Shown: one piece after another, positions 18,865 through 30,602 of the stretch
Layout of the letters: each line of letters opens with the position of its first letter
Position numbering within the stretch: position 1 is the first letter of the stretch
Origin: Arachidicoccus rhizosphaerae
GTDB lineage: Bacteria; Bacteroidota; Bacteroidia; Chitinophagales; Chitinophagaceae
DNA length: 60,192 bases
Assembly: GCF_900107765.1 (NCBI RefSeq)
Contig: NZ_FNQY01000025.1
Coordinates: 1-60,192 of the forward strand
Direction of reading: 5' to 3'
Position numbers and translations under genes: made by a program
The notes under the pieces: model-generated
What the model saw: only the letters and a program-made list of their open reading frames with translations
Database searches by the model: none
Told to the model about the DNA's origin: nothing

Positions 18865-18894
18865 GCCGGGCAAAAGAATGTACCTTTGCCCGGC
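18865..18894 (+). promoter_or_regulatory. rnpB promoter -7 box embedded in a perfect hairpin
   Basis: TACCTTTG at 18881-18888 fits the TAnnTTTG -7 consensus and is placed to start transcription at about 18893-18895, the predicted RNase P 5' end. The same bases are part of an exact inverted repeat, GCCGGGCAAA (18865-18874) with TTTGCCCGGC (18885-18894). The repeat may also end transcription from the gene at 18205. Confidence 0.6.
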
Positions 18895-19280
18895 TATTGA
18901 CCCGCGCTATCGCGGCCGGTACCCTTAAAAAGTACGGTCGAGGAAAGTCCGGACAGCATAGAGCAGCTTACCGGTGAAATGCCGGGGATTCTTGATAAAA
19001 GAATCACAGCCAGCACCACAGAAAATAACCGCCTTATGGCCTAAGTGGCCTGAGGTAAGGGTGAAAATGTACGGTAAGAGCGTACGGGAGAGGCTAGTAA
19101 TAGCGTCTTTGGGTAAGCCTTAAGCGCTGCAATGTCACATATAGTCGGGGTTGAAAGCGGCTCGTTTGATGTCCTGTTTACAGGGCAACCCGATGGGGTA
19201 GGCAGCTACATCAAAACAGTAATGTTTTGGGCAGATAAATGATAGTGTAGAAACAGAATCCGGCTTACGAGGTTGATAGC
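18893..19280 (+). ncRNA. rnpB: RNase P RNA (bacterial type A)
   Basis: The conserved core is unmistakable: GAGGAAAGTCCGGACAGCAT at 18940-18959, CACAGAAA around 19017-19024, GGTAAGGGTGAAA near 19053-19065, and ACAGAATCCGGCTTAC at 19253-19268. The 5' end GCTATTGACC and the 3' end GGTTGATAGC (19271-19280) can pair as helix P1. It is the catalytic RNA that matures tRNA 5' ends. A strong terminator hairpin follows. Confidence 0.97.
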
Positions 19281-19298
19281 ATTTTTACCCTAAAAGCA

Positions 19299-22729: not shown

Positions 22730-23215
22730 TTAACTGATGAGTGCGCGAGCCCTGATGACGGCTTTTTGAGCCTTGGCGATCCCCAAATGGAGATTTTCAT
22801 GAGCCAGACAACAAATCAGCGTATTGTCAATGCTATCCATCGGAATCTGATAGGTATCAGTGGAAGAACTCACCAGCCTTTCAAACGTGCCAGCTTTGAT
22901 ATCCGCTTCAATCTGATTCAGACTGGTCGCCACCAGGTGTTTTATCTTCTCCACTTCCTCAGCGGTAGCTTCCTTTTCAGGACGGGTACCTTTACCGAAT
23001 CTTCCGGGAAAGGGTAGTTGCAGATCCTGCTTTACCTGACTGCGAATATAGCAAAGTCCCAGTGTACTTATAGCGATATGCCCCAGATTCCAGATAATAT
23101 TATTATTAAAACCTTCCGGTATCCGGTTAAGCTCTTCCAGCGTCAGATCTTCGGCCATCCGCAAAAAAATCTCCCTGGATTTGCGTAAATAGGCTAAACT
23201 AATAGCTGAACTCAT
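22730..23215 (-). CDS. DinB-family protein inside the ilv operon
   Basis: 161 residues. The DinB/YfiT four-helix bundle pattern is present: metal-type histidines in 'IIWNLGHIAISTLGL' near the N-terminus and 'LAHENLHLGIAKAQKAV' at the C-terminus. Family members bind Ni or Zn and include thiol-dependent transferases, but most are uncharacterised. It starts 27 bases after ilvN stops and is followed by ilvC, so it is transcribed with branched-chain amino acid genes. No known step of that pathway needs it. Confidence 0.8.
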   Translation of the reverse strand: MSSAISLAYLRKSREIFLRMAEDLTLEELNRIPEGFNNNIIWNLGHIAISTLGLCYIRSQVKQDLQLPFPGRFGKGTRPEKEATAEEVEKIKHLVATSLNQIEADIKAGTFERLVSSSTDTYQIPMDSIDNTLICCLAHENLHLGIAKAQKAVIRARALIS

Positions 23216-25786: not shown

Positions 25787-27493
25787 TTACAACTTCTTTA
25801 AGTCCTCCGGTAATTCATCCGTTACACAGCCATAAGCGGCAGAAGCTACTGTATTGGCATATTTATAAAGTACTCCGGAACTAACTTTTAAAGCGGGTTG
25901 TTTCCATAATTTACGACGACGGTCAATTTCTTCCTGTGGTACTTTTAATTCGATTTTATTGTTAACCGCGTCAATTTCAATGATATCATCGTCCTGAACC
26001 AAGGCAATAAGGCCACCTTTATGGGCTTCCGGAGTGATATGTCCTACGACAAAGCCGTGCGTACCACCGCTAAAGCGGCCATCTGTAATCAGGGCCACGG
26101 TCTTGCCAAGTCCTGCGCCAATAATGGCTCCGGTAGGCTTCAGCATTTCGGGCATACCCGGAGCGCCGACCGGACCGGTATAACGGATCACCACGACATC
26201 ACCCGGATGTACTCTTTTAGAAGCGAGACCTTCAATCAGATGTGCTTCACCGTCAAATACACGGGCAGTACCTTCAAATCTTTCCCCTTCCTTACCGGTG
26301 ATTTTGGCAACACTACCATCTTCAGCCAGGTTACCATATAAAATCTGCAGGTGGCCTGTCGCTTTAATCGGATTTTCCAGGGGATGAATAATATCTTGTT
26401 TTTCAAAATCCAGATCCGGTGCATCGGCCAGATTTTCAGCAACCGTTTTACCGGTTACGGTTAAACAGTCGCCATGAATCAGCCCTTTAGAATACAGGTA
26501 TTTCATCACAGCCGGTGTGCCACCGTACTGGTGTAAATCTTCCATTAAATATTTACCGCTGGGTTTAAAGTCAGCCAGCATGGGTACTTTATCACTGATT
26601 GTTTGAAAATCATCCTGAGTCAACGGCACTTTAGCGGTTCTGGCAATGGCAATCATATGTAAAACGGCATTGGTGCTGCCGCCCAGGGCCATAATAACCG
26701 TCATTGCATTTTCAAACGCCTTGCGTGTCATTATATCGGAAGGCTTAATATCTTTTTCTAGTAAAAGACGGATGGCCTTACCAGCTGCTTCGCATTCTCT
26801 TTTCTTTTCTTCGCTCAGTGCAGGGTTAGAAGAAGAGTAAGGCAGGCTCATTCCCAGCGCTTCAATGGCACTGGCCATGGTATTAGCGGTATACATCCCA
26901 CCACATGCTCCGGCGCCTGGACAGGCATGCTGAACAATTCCTTTAAAGTCAGCGGGATCCAGATTGCCTGCAATTTTTTGCCCCAGCGCCTCAAAGGCAG
27001 AGACGATATTTAAATCTTCCCCTTTATAATGCCCCGGTGCGATTGTGCCACCATAGAGCATAATAGAAGGGCGGTTCAGCCTGGCCATCGCCATAACTGA
27101 ACCCGGCATATTTTTATCACATCCAGGAATGGTAATCAATCCATCATAATACTGCGCTCCGGCGTTCGTTTCAATGCTGTCTGCAATTACGTCCCTGCTC
27201 ACCAAAGAGTAACGCATCCCATCGGTACCGTTGGCCATCCCGTCACTAACCCCTATGGTATAAAAACGAAGACCGACCAGGCCGGTGTCGTTAACACTTT
27301 TTCTGACCTCTGTAGCCAGATCATTTAAGTGCATGTTACAGGGATTACCATCCCAGCCCATAGCGGCAATACCTACCTGCGCCTTTTGCAGATCTTCATC
27401 ATTCATGCCAATGGCATAATACATGGCCTGGGCACCAGGCTGCGTTTCGTCCTGGGTCAGTGTTTTAGAATATTTATTGAGATTTGATTCCAT
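25787..27493 (-). CDS. ilvD: Dihydroxy-acid dehydratase
   Basis: 568 residues. Iron-sulfur cysteines are in '[20 protein letters not shown]' and '[20 protein letters not shown]'. The C-terminal motif '[20 protein letters not shown]' is the usual active-site loop. It makes the 2-oxo acids of valine and isoleucine. It is the first structural gene after the leader peptide and attenuator at 27585-27738, so its expression, and that of ilvB, ilvN and ilvC, is probably set there. Confidence 0.96.
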
Positions 27494-27584: not shown

Positions 27585-27619
27585 CGAAAAAACCACTTCC
27601 TTAATGGGGAAGTGGTTTT
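27585..27619 (-). terminator. Attenuator terminator of the ilv operon
   Basis: On the minus strand AAAACCACTTCC, a 7-base loop and GGAAGTGGTTTT are followed by a short T run: an intrinsic terminator between the leader peptide and ilvD. Its 5' arm and loop edge (CCACTTCCCC, 27606-27615) can instead pair with GGGGGTGG (27656-27663) inside the leader ORF, with the two T bulged, giving an antiterminator. Confidence 0.85.
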
Positions 27620-27642
27620 CTTAATTTTATTTTGTTCGTGTA

Positions 27643-27738
27643 TTACAAAACAAATCCACCCCCTCTGAAAGAAGAAATAATGACCACCACAATAATAATG
27701 ACCACCACAGGGATTATATTTTTTACACTTGTTTTCAT
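27643..27738 (-). CDS. ilv leader peptide (Val/Ile-rich attenuator peptide)
   Basis: 31 codons plus stop, too short for ordinary gene calling. After a start of seven residues (MKTSVKN), residues 8-21 are Ile and Val apart from one Pro: I8 I9, P10, three Val, three Ile, three Val, two Ile. The peptide ends SSFRGGG..VL. Of the 31 residues, 8 are Val, 7 Ile and 1 Leu, exactly the products of the operon downstream. It starts about 30 bases after the predicted transcription start and is followed by the terminator at 27585-27619. A ribosome waiting at the Val/Ile run would leave the G-rich codons 25-28 free to form the antiterminator. The role is inferred from this architecture. Confidence 0.88.
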   Translation of the reverse strand: MKTSVKNIIPVVVIIIVVVIISSFRGGGFVL

Positions 27739-27772
27739 CTAATGAATCAGTTTGCTTTCGCTAACCGTGAAA

Positions 27773-27780
27773 CAAATGTA
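27773..27780 (-). promoter_or_regulatory. Promoter -7 box of the ilv operon
   Basis: TACATTTG on the minus strand fits TAnnTTTG. A TTG lies about 22 bases upstream. The expected start at about 27765 gives a leader RNA of about 270 bases before ilvD. The box is downstream of the leuB stop, so ilv has its own promoter. Confidence 0.7.
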
Positions 27781-27856
27781 GAAAAAAAATTAAAACAAAG
27801 AACAATGCTGAAAAAAAATATTTCCCTCAGCCTTAAAAACCAGATCCAAAAAACTT

Positions 27857-28978
27857 TTAAATAATGGTTGATTTACCCAGTTCTACTGATTTTTTATTGA
27901 TATCGGCCGGAATTTTCTGCTCGATAAAATCTTTAATCAGGTCTCCAATCACACTGGTGCCATAGTTATTGACGCTGTCAATATCCTGACTGACAAATCC
28001 TTGAGACAAGGTCCAGGCCACTGCTTTTCTAACCAGCGCTGCTTCCTCATTCATATTGAAATGTTCCAGCATCATGGCGGCGCTTAAAATAGAACCGATC
28101 GGGTTAGCAATATCCTTACCCGCCGCCTGCGGATACGAACCGTGAATGGGTTCAAATAAGGTGGTACCTGTTCCTACGGAGGAAGAAGGAAGCAGTCCCA
28201 GCGAACCGCTGAGTACACTTGCCTCATCGCTGATAATATCACCAAACATATTTTCCGTGAGTACCACATCAAACTGCTTGGGATTGACAATAATCTGCAT
28301 GGAGGCATTATCCACGAACATATAATCTACTTTGATGTCAGGATAACTGGGTGCGATATCCTGCACTACCTTACGCCATAAACGTGAGGTTTCCAGAACA
28401 TTGGCTTTATCCACCAGGGTCAGTTTTTTTCTGCGTTCAGGACGTCCGGCATACTGGAAAGCCAGATGCGCTATTCTTTCGATTTCCGGTTGGGTATAAC
28501 TGCAAAGGTCAGACGCTTCAGTCTTTTCTTCGTTGATTTTCTTTTCTCCAAAATAAATACCCCCGGTCAGTTCCCTGAAAATAACAAAATCCACGCCATC
28601 CATTTTCTCCGGTTTAAGAGGAGAGAGATGATTAAGCGCAGGATAAGTAATCACAGGACGGATATTGGCAAAAAGCTGTAAGGATTTACGCAGCTTCAGC
28701 AGGCCCTGTTCAGGACGTACTTTAGCCGTAGGGTCGTTATCATATTTAGGATCACCAATGGCTCCGAAAAGTACTGCGTCGCTTTTTAAGGCAGATTCAA
28801 TGGTGGCATCCGGTAGCGGATTACCGGTTTTGTCAATGGCAATGGCACCCATCAACTGGTAATCATATGTAAACTCATGACCAAACTGTTCGCCAACCGC
28901 ATTTAAAATCTTAATAGATTGTTCCGTTACTTCCGGGCCGATACCGTCACCTAAAATGACCGTGATATTCTTTTTCAT
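27857..28978 (-). CDS. leuB: 3-isopropylmalate dehydrogenase
   Basis: 373 residues. N-terminal 'ITVILGDGIGPEVTEQSIKI' and the decarboxylating dehydrogenase motifs 'ELTGGIYFGEKK', 'DNASMQIIVNPKQFDVVLTE', 'NMFGDIISDEASVLSGSLGL' and 'EPIHGSYPQAAGKDIANP' are all present. It oxidises and decarboxylates 3-isopropylmalate with NAD in leucine synthesis. It is the last gene of the leu cluster, 82 bases downstream of the ABC ATPase gene. Confidence 0.96.
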   Translation of the reverse strand: MKKNITVILGDGIGPEVTEQSIKILNAVGEQFGHEFTYDYQLMGAIAIDKTGNPLPDATIESALKSDAVLFGAIGDPKYDNDPTAKVRPEQGLLKLRKSLQLFANIRPVITYPALNHLSPLKPEKMDGVDFVIFRELTGGIYFGEKKINEEKTEASDLCSYTQPEIERIAHLAFQYAGRPERRKKLTLVDKANVLETSRLWRKVVQDIAPSYPDIKVDYMFVDNASMQIIVNPKQFDVVLTENMFGDIISDEASVLSGSLGLLPSSSVGTGTTLFEPIHGSYPQAAGKDIANPIGSILSAAMMLEHFNMNEEAALVRKAVAWTLSQGFVSQDIDSVNNYGTSVIGDLIKDFIEQKIPADINKKSVELGKSTII

Positions 28979-29060: not shown

Positions 29061-30602
29061 TTATCTAATGATCTCAGAAGGCTGTTTAACTTTTTCCATC
29101 CGGGCCACTTTAAAAATATGATATCCCCCCTTACCATCACCTAAAAGTTCCAGTACACTGGTCACCACCGCCGGAATTTCCGATGCATAATGACTGATAT
29201 AAATCAGGGACGCGCCCGTTTTTTTGCAATAGTCCTCCACCAATTTTACAAAGGCCTCCGTCTGCCACTGATCCAGCCCCTGACAGGGTTCGTCCAGTAT
29301 CAGTAAAGGCGGATTTTTAACAAAGGCTCTAAGTAACATGATCAGTCTTTGCTGGCCTGTAGAGATCTCAGAAAGTCTTTTTTGTTGGATCTGTGTCAGT
29401 CCAAGTACGGTTAACCAGTTATGGATGAGCTCCGTCTGTTTCTCGGAGAGTTTTCTATACAGGCCCATGGTATCAAAAAAGCCACTGGCCACCGTCTGAA
29501 AGACCGTAATATTTTTATCAAAAAAAGCGTGCAGCTCCGGAGACACAAACCCCATTTTCGCCTTGATATCCCAGATACTTTCACCGGTTCCTCTTTTTTT
29601 GCCAAATAGATAAATTTCATTGGCATAGGCTCTCGGGTTATCGCCATAAATAAGGCTTAGCAAAGTTGATTTACCGGCACCATTAGGGCCTTTCAATAAC
29701 CACCTTTCACCAGCCAGCACCTGCCAGTTGAGATCATCAAAAATGACTTTGTCTGCATAGGCAATATGCAGATGCTCCATTTTAATGATGGCGTTATCAA
29801 ATGCTGTCCCTCCATTAACGTCACTGTCTGCACCTGCCGCTTCTAAGTCTAAGGACGAAAGATCATAGCGCTGCACGGCAGGGTGAAAACCAGGCTGATA
29901 ATCTTTTAATTCACCAAAATAACTGGCATTACCCTCCATTAGTTCTAATACGTGGGTAGCCACCACTGGAAAATGATCTCTGGCACCCGTTAGTGTGATC
30001 AACTGGATGCCGCTGCGGGTTAAATTCTCCAGAAACAGATTCAGCGAAGCTCTTGCCTGAATATCCAGTCCAACAAAGGGTTCATCTAAAATCACGACAG
30101 GAGCCGGATCGAGCAGCATTTTAACCAACTGAAAGCGTTTATGCTCGCCACTGGAAAGGGTGAGCAACGTCTTATCTAAAAGGTAATCAATACCAAAGGA
30201 GGACAAATGCGCTTTGATAATTTCCGGGTTATCTATAATGGTCATCAGCTCTTCAAGCACCGTATACGCATCCTCATTATCCAGGCTGTTATAACGCTGC
30301 TGATAATAGCCATCCACCGTATTACTTCGGTTTTTGATGGTATAGCGCTGATCCACCATCTGAACTTTTCTGCCGCCGGCTGATTTGGCATCCGTCGAGA
30401 GGTTTACTTCCAGCTGGCCGGTTACAAATAATTTTCCGGCAAGGGCCATGCCCAAACTGGTCTTACCGCTGCCGGAAGGCCCGGTAATCACCAGGTTCGC
30501 CCCCTGGGGCAATTCCATATTCAGATTATCCAAACCAAACCCGCCGGGTCTGGTCAGTTTAACTTGTTTTAATATAATACTTGATGTACTCACGCTAAAC
30601 AA
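29061..30602 (-). CDS. Tandem ABC ATPase (ModF-like) within the leu operon
   Basis: 513 residues with two ABC domains and no membrane segment. Domain 1: Walker A 'ITGPSGSGKTSLGMALAG', signature 'TLSSGEHKRFQLVKMLL', Walker B 'VVILDEPFVGLD'. Domain 2: Walker A 'LLKGPNGAGKSTLLSLIYGD', signature 'EISTGQQRLIMLLRAFVK', Walker B 'LLILDEPCQGLD'. The layout matches ModF/YlmA-like soluble tandem ATPases, linked to molybdate uptake in E. coli but of unknown role in most bacteria. It begins 17 bases after leuD and precedes leuB, so it is co-expressed with leucine genes, with no transporter permease nearby. Confidence 0.8.
   Translation of the reverse strand: MFSVSTSSIILKQVKLTRPGGFGLDNLNMELPQGANLVITGPSGSGKTSLGMALAGKLFVTGQLEVNLSTDAKSAGGRKVQMVDQRYTIKNRSNTVDGYYQQRYNSLDNEDAYTVLEELMTIIDNPEIIKAHLSSFGIDYLLDKTLLTLSSGEHKRFQLVKMLLDPAPVVILDEPFVGLDIQARASLNLFLENLTRSGIQLITLTGARDHFPVVATHVLELMEGNASYFGELKDYQPGFHPAVQRYDLSSLDLEAAGADSDVNGGTAFDNAIIKMEHLHIAYADKVIFDDLNWQVLAGERWLLKGPNGAGKSTLLSLIYGDNPRAYANEIYLFGKKRGTGESIWDIKAKMGFVSPELHAFFDKNITVFQTVASGFFDTMGLYRKLSEKQTELIHNWLTVLGLTQIQQKRLSEISTGQQRLIMLLRAFVKNPPLLILDEPCQGLDQWQTEAFVKLVEDYCKKTGASLIYISHYASEIPAVVTSVLELLGDGKGGYHIFKVARMEKVKQPSEIIR

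What the first reader, a model, noticed from the sequence alone, without database searches (positions are those of the whole stretch)
27585..27780. Complete Val/Ile transcription attenuator in front of ilvD-ilvB-ilvN-ilvC
Seen in sequence: a TACATTTG promoter, a 31-codon ORF in which residues 8-21 are Ile/Val except one Pro, and an intrinsic terminator before ilvD. There is also a strong alternative pairing: GGGGGTGG (27656-27663), which is codons 25-28 of the leader ORF, pairs with CCACTTCCCC (27606-27615), the 5' arm and loop edge of the terminator, with two bulged T. A ribosome stalled on Val/Ile codons leaves the G-rich block free, so the antiterminator forms. A ribosome that reaches the stop covers it, so the terminator forms. 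Ribosome-mediated attenuation is well known for proteobacterial ilv operons. Here the design is compact: the antiterminator strand is inside the reading frame itself. I do not know of a described case in this bacterial group.
Basis: partly seen in the sequence, partly recalled or inferred. Interest (0 to 1): 0.85.

Follow-up and report, generated by a model that had tools for sequence, protein, structure and literature searches.

The report
Ile/Val leader-peptide attenuator before ilvD
A tiny gene rich in valine and isoleucine codons sits in front of branched-chain amino acid genes, and its last codons can pair with the signal that stops transcription, so a ribosome starved of these amino acids should switch the genes on; the trick is classical, but it appears little described in this bacterial phylum.

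Summary
On the minus strand a -7 box, a 31-codon Ile/Val-run ORF (27738-27643) and an intrinsic terminator (27619-27587) precede ilvD-ilvB-ilvN-DinB-ilvC-ilvA. A leader of this kind was found in 57 of 70 ilvD loci examined from the window's family, before ilvD or further upstream (before ilvE in the 6 loci tested). Its last codons pair with the terminator's 5' arm: best complementarity lies within -24..+3 nt of the stop in 82 of 85 leaders. With a model ribosome at the last run codon, 75 of 85 hold the arm by at least 7 bp against 21.8 with shuffled ORF ends; at the stop codon 1 of 85 by at least 5 bp. In two relatives the block outlives a frame change or a stop, so RNA rather than peptide seems selected. 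The layout recurs with unrelated sequences in distant Bacteroidota and at his, trp and some phe genes. Conclusion: ribosome-mediated attenuation, a new member of a known kind. The compact layout is not new (E. coli thrL has it), and leader-peptide attenuation was suggested in flavobacteria (PMC9723704). No experiment tests the switch.

The parts
27796..27803 (-). GTTCTTTG, possible upstream (-33-like) promoter element
   Evidence: read; TTCTTTG lies within 90 nt upstream of 40 of 85 leaders against 1.8 in shuffles; with 16-24 nt to the -7 box in 36 of 85. Here the spacing is 15 nt
27773..27780 (-). TACATTTG, Bacteroidota-type -7 box (motif name recalled)
   Evidence: TAnnTT(T/C)G within 90 nt upstream of 64 of 85 leaders against 8.35 in shuffles
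27643..27738 (-). leader ORF, 31 codons plus stop, MKTSVKNIIPVVVIIIVVVIISSFRGGGFVL
   Evidence: run, spacer and G-block recur in relatives
27676..27717 (-). regulatory codons 8-21, 13 Ile/Val of 14
27656..27663 (-). antiterminator strand GGGGGTGG (codons 26-28)
   Evidence: alignment A1 columns 43-47 and 54-56
27606..27615 (-). CCACTTCCCC: part of the terminator 5' arm and loop edge, partner of the antiterminator strand
27587..27619 (-). intrinsic terminator: stem 27619-27608 / 27600-27589, loop 27607-27601, T-run
   Evidence: covariation in relatives
25787..27493 (-). ilvD, first gene controlled
   Evidence: PF00920/PF24877
20039..25735 (-). downstream genes ilvB, ilvN, DinB-like, ilvC, ilvA
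   Evidence: that all lie in one transcript is inferred

Best explanation
It is a ribosome-mediated transcription attenuator of the ilv operon, with two competing pairings. RNA polymerase starts just upstream and a ribosome translates the leader. If charged Val- or Ile-tRNA is scarce, the ribosome stalls in the run, whose end lies 12 nt before the G-block. The G-block is then free and captures the terminator's 5' arm as it emerges, so no terminator forms and ilvD onward is transcribed. If supply is ample, the ribosome runs to the stop codon and covers the G-block, the terminator folds, and transcription ends after roughly 180 nt. Shown here: anatomy, conservation, complementarity, some covariation, spacing and fold predictions. 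Inferred: promoter use, translation, stalling, operon extent and regulated read-through.
For: Best complementarity to the terminator within -24..+3 nt of the stop in 82 of 85 leaders, and a run-to-strand spacer of 11-12 nt in 46 of 85. Unbulged pairing p<=0.05 in 55 of 85. Model ribosome at the last run codon: 5' arm held upstream by at least 7 bp in 75 of 85 against 21.8 with shuffled ORF ends; at the stop codon, at least 5 bp in 1 of 85. Covariants such as GGAAGTGG x CCACTTCC. Block kept while the peptide changes: L141 (other frame) and L014 (stop at the block). Distant leaders without selection (n=30): native pairing 16.8 against 12.1 swapped, permutation p 5e-5. Same logic at his (13 leaders in 30 loci, 13 of 13 p<=0.05).
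Against: No expression data. The window's own strand is not significant alone (p=0.095), and 30 of 85 leaders do not reach p<=0.05; swapping among those similar leaders changes the score little (18.6 to 16.9). Compensatory evidence in A1 is modest: 3 pairs and 6 cells with double changes (26 of 500 and 1 of 500 shuffles as high), and slid versions reach as many such cells (up to 11), so only the share of paired cells and the covariation score set the true register apart. No leader found in 13 of 70 family loci and, searching 1500 nt upstream, in 41 of 80 named loci. At full length the terminator is the minimum-energy fold in 82 of 85 with the ribosome at the last run codon, so the switch must be kinetic. 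Without any ribosome the antiterminator is predicted in 77 of 85, so untranslated leader should read through, unlike the trp textbook case (recalled).
Confidence: 0.9

Rival explanations
1. The ORF encodes a small membrane-like peptide with its own function, and the terminator merely ends the upstream leu transcript.
For: The run is hydrophobic, and run + P + GGG recurs at peptide level.
Against: The C-terminus differs where the RNA pairing is kept: REVV in L141, a stop at the block in L014, RETAF and PLRL in Chryseobacterium, each still complementary to its own terminator. Own promoter box. His, Trp and Phe/Tyr runs stand before his, trp and phe genes.
Confidence: 0.04
2. GGAGGTGG is conserved as a Shine-Dalgarno-like pause or initiation signal rather than as an antiterminator strand.
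For: GGAGG is a Shine-Dalgarno core (recalled).
Against: Strands in other lineages and operons are not SD-like (GTGAGGCACT, CGGTGTGAGTGG, GAAACGG, GGTAAGCC, CGGGGTTCTG), yet match their own terminators. The next gene starts 150 nt after the leader's stop, past a terminator.
Confidence: 0.03
3. Attenuation occurs but depends on a third, protective stem (classical 1:2 hairpin), so that untranslated leader terminates.
For: Before the terminator is made, the strand pairs upstream (at least 5 bp) in 69 of 85 leaders, the window's included.
Against: Shuffled upstream ORFs give 59.7 of 85, so there is little excess; once the 5' arm is made, the ORF-end strand holds it in 77 of 85.
Confidence: 0.2

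Closest known systems
E. coli thr operon attenuator (thrL)
   Same: Regulatory-codon run, then a strand in the last codons and stop (GGTGCGGGCT, starting at -9) that is fully complementary over 10 nt to the terminator's 5' arm, which begins 20 nt after the ORF. The same layout.
   Different: Thr/Ile codons and other genes; nothing beyond layout was compared.
E. coli trpL, leuL and hisL attenuators
   Same: Leader peptide, terminator, control by stalling (recalled).
   Different: In the same calculation no strong strand overlaps the stop codon; best strands start at +5 or -18 (trp), -31 (leu) and +35 (his) relative to the stop. Protector stems are recalled for these.
Bacteroid-trp RNA (Rfam RF01692)
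   Same: Bacteroidetes cis-regulatory RNA (PMC2864571 table row); described as similar to the E. coli trp leader and conserved before trp in F. psychrophilum (PMC6414381 passage).
   Different: Different operon. At gathering score the window gave only RNase P RNA and 16 relatives, 12 of them trp loci, gave nothing.
Leader-peptide attenuators suggested in Flavobacterium psychrophilum
   Same: Same phylum; 'strong clues' upstream of operons for amino-acid biosynthesis (PMC9723704, passage seen).
   Different: The passage names no operon, sequence or pairing; the supplement could not be read here.

Membership tests
ribosome-mediated transcription attenuator of an amino-acid operon | short ORF with a run of codons for the product amino acids of the operon | tested here: met
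   13 of 14 codons Ile/Val before ilvD-B-N-C
ribosome-mediated transcription attenuator of an amino-acid operon | intrinsic terminator between leader ORF and first gene | tested here: met
   stem covaries in relatives
ribosome-mediated transcription attenuator of an amino-acid operon | mutually exclusive antiterminator involving the terminator's 5' arm | tested here: met
   predicted, not probed:
ribosome-mediated transcription attenuator of an amino-acid operon | position of the ribosome decides between the two structures | tested here: met
   in silico only: antiterminator (at least 5 bp) in 85 (mid-run), 77 (last run codon) and 1 (stop) of 85; shuffled ORF ends still give 42.6 at the last run codon
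ribosome-mediated transcription attenuator of an amino-acid operon | read-through rises when the amino acids are limiting | not testable with these tools
   needs RNA-seq or a reporter
classical three-stem (trp-type) attenuator | protector 1:2 hairpin that sequesters the antiterminator strand without translation | tested here: inconclusive
   69 of 85 against 59.7 in shuffles; overridden in 77 of 85
Bacteroid-trp (RF01692) or another Rfam leader family | covariance-model match at gathering score | tested here: not met
   only sub-threshold hits to other families

The most novel reading that the evidence does not exclude
Bacteroidota control several amino-acid operons (ilv, his, trp, phe, perhaps thr) by one minimal attenuator design. 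The leader's last codons or its stop codon are themselves the antiterminator strand and there is no protector stem, so an untranslated leader reads through. The paired sequence has been rewired many times, and some members stack two such attenuators in tandem.
Probability: 0.55. Interest if true: 0.65.

Novelty: new member of a known kind. Interest (0 to 1): 0.5.

Why it matters
Amino-acid gene control in Bacteroidota, a large phylum of soil, water and gut, seems little described in the library searched. A switch recognisable by eye in front of ilv, his, trp and phe genes gives testable regulation for many genomes at once. The prediction that untranslated leaders read through separates this design from the trp textbook case. 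The Gly-Gly-Gly ending would be a clear example of peptide sequence dictated by RNA pairing.

Tried and rejected
Peptide function and Shine-Dalgarno function of the G-block were considered and set aside (see rivals). A protector stem was sought and found little above chance. Leu-run leaders before leuA: 0 of 30 loci, one of which (L272) is only a weak match to the family. thrA: a leader-like Thr/Ile ORF in the own genome but no T-run terminator after it; 1 of 20 stretches (L279) gave leader plus terminator. Own phe leader (L386): no good strand near the stop. Own trp leader (L239) was not picked up by the scripts (its terminator loop is longer than they allow) and was read by eye. Rfam at a permissive threshold gave sub-threshold hits only.

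What was examined and what was left out. One search found ilvD in 80 of 117 family genomes; I examined 70 (30 loci and 40 fetched); not fetched then were G047 and the lowest-scoring ones (G014 was seen later as L301, without a leader). L080 (ATT start, not leader-like) was dropped by eye from the 86 distinct ORFs, leaving 85. Eleven of 86 distinct ORFs were left out of alignment A1 (other lineages or not leader-like). In one search the hit in L399 was judged chance and not counted. The trp count of 15 keeps L230 and the phe count of 22 keeps L370, both of which look spurious. The phylum set is 25 loci plus 40 stretches that I chose for diversity. The 24 leaders were picked by hand; one failed, so 23 were used; one search repeats the test without selection. 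Searches give 29 and 30 leaders; they apply the length limit differently, which is the likely cause. I did not correct for shared ancestry of the leaders.

Full report
What is there. On the minus strand, between leuB (27857-28978) and ilvD (25787-27493), lie a TACATTTG box (27780-27773), a 31-codon ORF (27738-27643) with 13 Ile/Val in codons 8-21, and an intrinsic terminator (stem 27619-27608 / 27600-27589, T-run to 27587). GGGGGTGG (27663-27656, codons 26-28) is complementary to CCACTTCC(CC) (27615-27606), in the terminator's 5' arm and loop edge. The downstream genes are ilvD, ilvB, ilvN, a DinB_2 gene, ilvC and ilvA. A scan of both strands of the window for short ATG ORFs with an amino-acid run followed by a terminator returned this one only. 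The leader RNA folds better than 199 of 200 shuffles. Named close relatives are mostly Chitinophagaceae; that the window belongs there is inferred.

Conservation. I examined 150 ilvD loci: 70 from genomes of the window's family (70 of the 80 family genomes with ilvD) and 80 named ones, which reach into Sphingobacteriaceae and Flavobacteriales. Searching up to 1500 nt upstream, 89 of 150 had an Ile/Val/Leu-run ORF followed by a terminator, 86 distinct: 50 of 70 family loci and 39 of 80 named loci. Fetching further upstream for the 20 family misses gave 7 more, so 57 of 70. The leader stands directly before ilvD, or further upstream (roughly 1.0-1.4 kb in many) before another gene; in the 6 such loci tested this gene is ilvE (6 of 6 above the TIGR01122 cut-off). 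A common ending is the run + PALHGGG, coded by GGAGGTGG.

The antiterminator. For 85 distinct leaders (L080 dropped), the best unbulged duplex between the ORF end and the terminator 5' arm has at least 7 bp in 63, shuffle p<=0.05 in 55 and p<=0.01 in 41. The window's own is p=0.095. Swapping terminators among these similar leaders lowers the score only from 18.6 to 16.9. Sliding a 10-nt window along the leader, the best complementarity falls within -24..+3 of the stop codon in 82 of 85, and the distance from the last run codon to the strand is 11-12 nt in 46 of 85, about the stretch a ribosome covers ahead of its A site (recalled). In an alignment of 75 leaders the antiterminator has 90.0% paired cells against 50.8-68.3% for slid versions and a covariation score of 0.083 against at most 0.056. 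It has 3 pairs with double changes (26 of 500 shuffles reach this) and 6 double-change cells (1 of 500), but slid versions show 2 to 11 such cells, so that count alone does not decide. The terminator stem has 17 double-change cells (0 of 500; slid at most 9). The same-genus L004 and L007 carry GGAAGTGG x CCACTTCC, changing both partners relative to the common GGAGGTGG x CCGCCTCC.

RNA rather than peptide. In L141 the block GGGAGGTGG is read in another frame (REVV). In L014 the place of the first Gly codon is a TGA stop and the terminator carries the matching A (TGAGGTGG x CCGCCTCA). In Chryseobacterium the ends are RETAF (GAAACGG x CCGTTTC, read by eye, scored) and PLRL-stop (CTGTGAGA x TCTCACAG), in two tandem leaders before ilvE.

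Spread. In 65 loci from a phylum-wide search (102 of 247 genomes have ilvD at the cut-off; stretches), 29 run ORFs with terminators were found; 11 have p<=0.05 and 8 p<=0.01, with unrelated blocks such as CATCGGGGCG, CGGTGTGAGTGG and GTGAGGCACT; 18 of 29 do not reach p<=0.05. Without selection, native pairing scores 16.8 against 12.1 when terminators are swapped (n=30, permutation p 5e-5, native best or tied for 12 of 30). In a hand-picked set 18 of 23 leaders match their own terminator best. Other operons in the family: his leaders in 13 of 30 loci, 13 of 13 with p<=0.05 and the stop codon inside the strand (for example GGTAAGCC), the own genome included (L173); trp leaders in 15 of 30 loci, 5 with p<=0.05, plus the own one read by eye; phe in 22 of 29 loci (no p-values computed, pairing mixed, poor in the own genome); leu 0 of 30.

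Mechanism. I folded the RNA downstream of a model ribosome. With the A site four codons before the run end, at least 5 bp hold the 5' arm before the 3' arm exists in 85 of 85; at the last run codon in 77 of 85; at the stop codon in 1 of 85, where the terminator forms in 85 of 85. With shuffled ORF ends the last-run-codon figures fall from 77 to 42.6 (at least 5 bp) and from 75 to 21.8 (at least 7 bp). At full length the terminator is usually the more stable fold (82 of 85 at the last run codon, 57 of 85 mid-run), so the decision must be kinetic, as I recall for classical attenuators. Without a ribosome the ORF-end strand is predicted to hold the 5' arm in 77 of 85, and evidence for a protector stem is slight (69 of 85 against 59.7 in shuffles). 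The promoter box TAnnTT(T/C)G is upstream of 64 of 85 leaders against 8.35 in shuffles.

Comparison with the known. The same calculation on E. coli K-12 leaders shows thrL with the same compact layout, while trpL, leuL and hisL differ. So the design is known in kind. No Rfam family matches the leader at gathering score. Ten literature searches (listings, 20 of 44 shown) showed no description of ilv attenuators in Bacteroidota in the held open-access library. Nearest are the Bacteroid-trp entry (PMC2864571, table row and passages seen), a sentence on trp in F. psychrophilum (PMC6414381, passage) and a sentence on leader-peptide attenuation before amino-acid operons in F. psychrophilum (PMC9723704, passages). 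A Bacteroides thetaiotaomicron transcriptome notes short ORFs in long 5' UTRs reminiscent of leader peptides (PMC7366714, passage). [quoted passage not shown] Subscription papers, including a 2004 survey of attenuators that I recall, were not readable, so 'undescribed' is only as good as that library.

Verdict. As a single finding it is a new member of a known kind. Its interest lies in the recurrence through the phylum of one minimal layout with rewired sequences.

Noticed in passing
L094, L100, L103, L112 (Chryseobacterium), about 1.1-1.4 kb before ilvD: Two Ile/Val leader ORFs in tandem upstream (ilvE follows in L094); in L100, read base by base, each has its own terminator and matching strand, which would make a double attenuator.
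   Followed up: partly
L099, L109, L110 (Pedobacter): A Leu-rich leader with terminator upstream (before ilvE in L099); L099 and L110 (and L102) also have an Ile/Val leader 176-179 nt before ilvD, an internal attenuator.
   Followed up: partly
L273 (own genome, G000:C12 about 11.6-11.8 kb), L275, L276, L284: Upstream of thrA: a Thr/Ile/Val-rich leader-like ORF (GTG start in the own genome) and, in L273 and L275, the element GGGCCGTTAAGGC (similar ones in L276, L284), but no T-run terminator; another mode of control is possible.
   Followed up: partly
L173 (own genome, G000:C9), his operon: MFKKAHTHHHHFLFNG leader whose last bases and stop (GGTAAGTT) pair with the terminator arm (AGCTTACC), p 0.04.
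   Followed up: yes
L239 (own genome, G000:C9), trp operon: MILNRVNIHWWWQCSKTSGSFEV leader followed by a terminator; by eye CGTCGGG can pair with CTCGGCG.
   Followed up: partly
window 22730-23215 (-): A DinB_2 family gene sits between ilvN and ilvC.
   Followed up: no
window 29061-30602 (-): A 513-aa protein with two ABC ATPase stretches between leuD and leuB; unexpected in a leu/ilv cluster.
   Followed up: no
window 18894-19283 (+): RNase P RNA, bacterial class A (RF00010).
   Followed up: no
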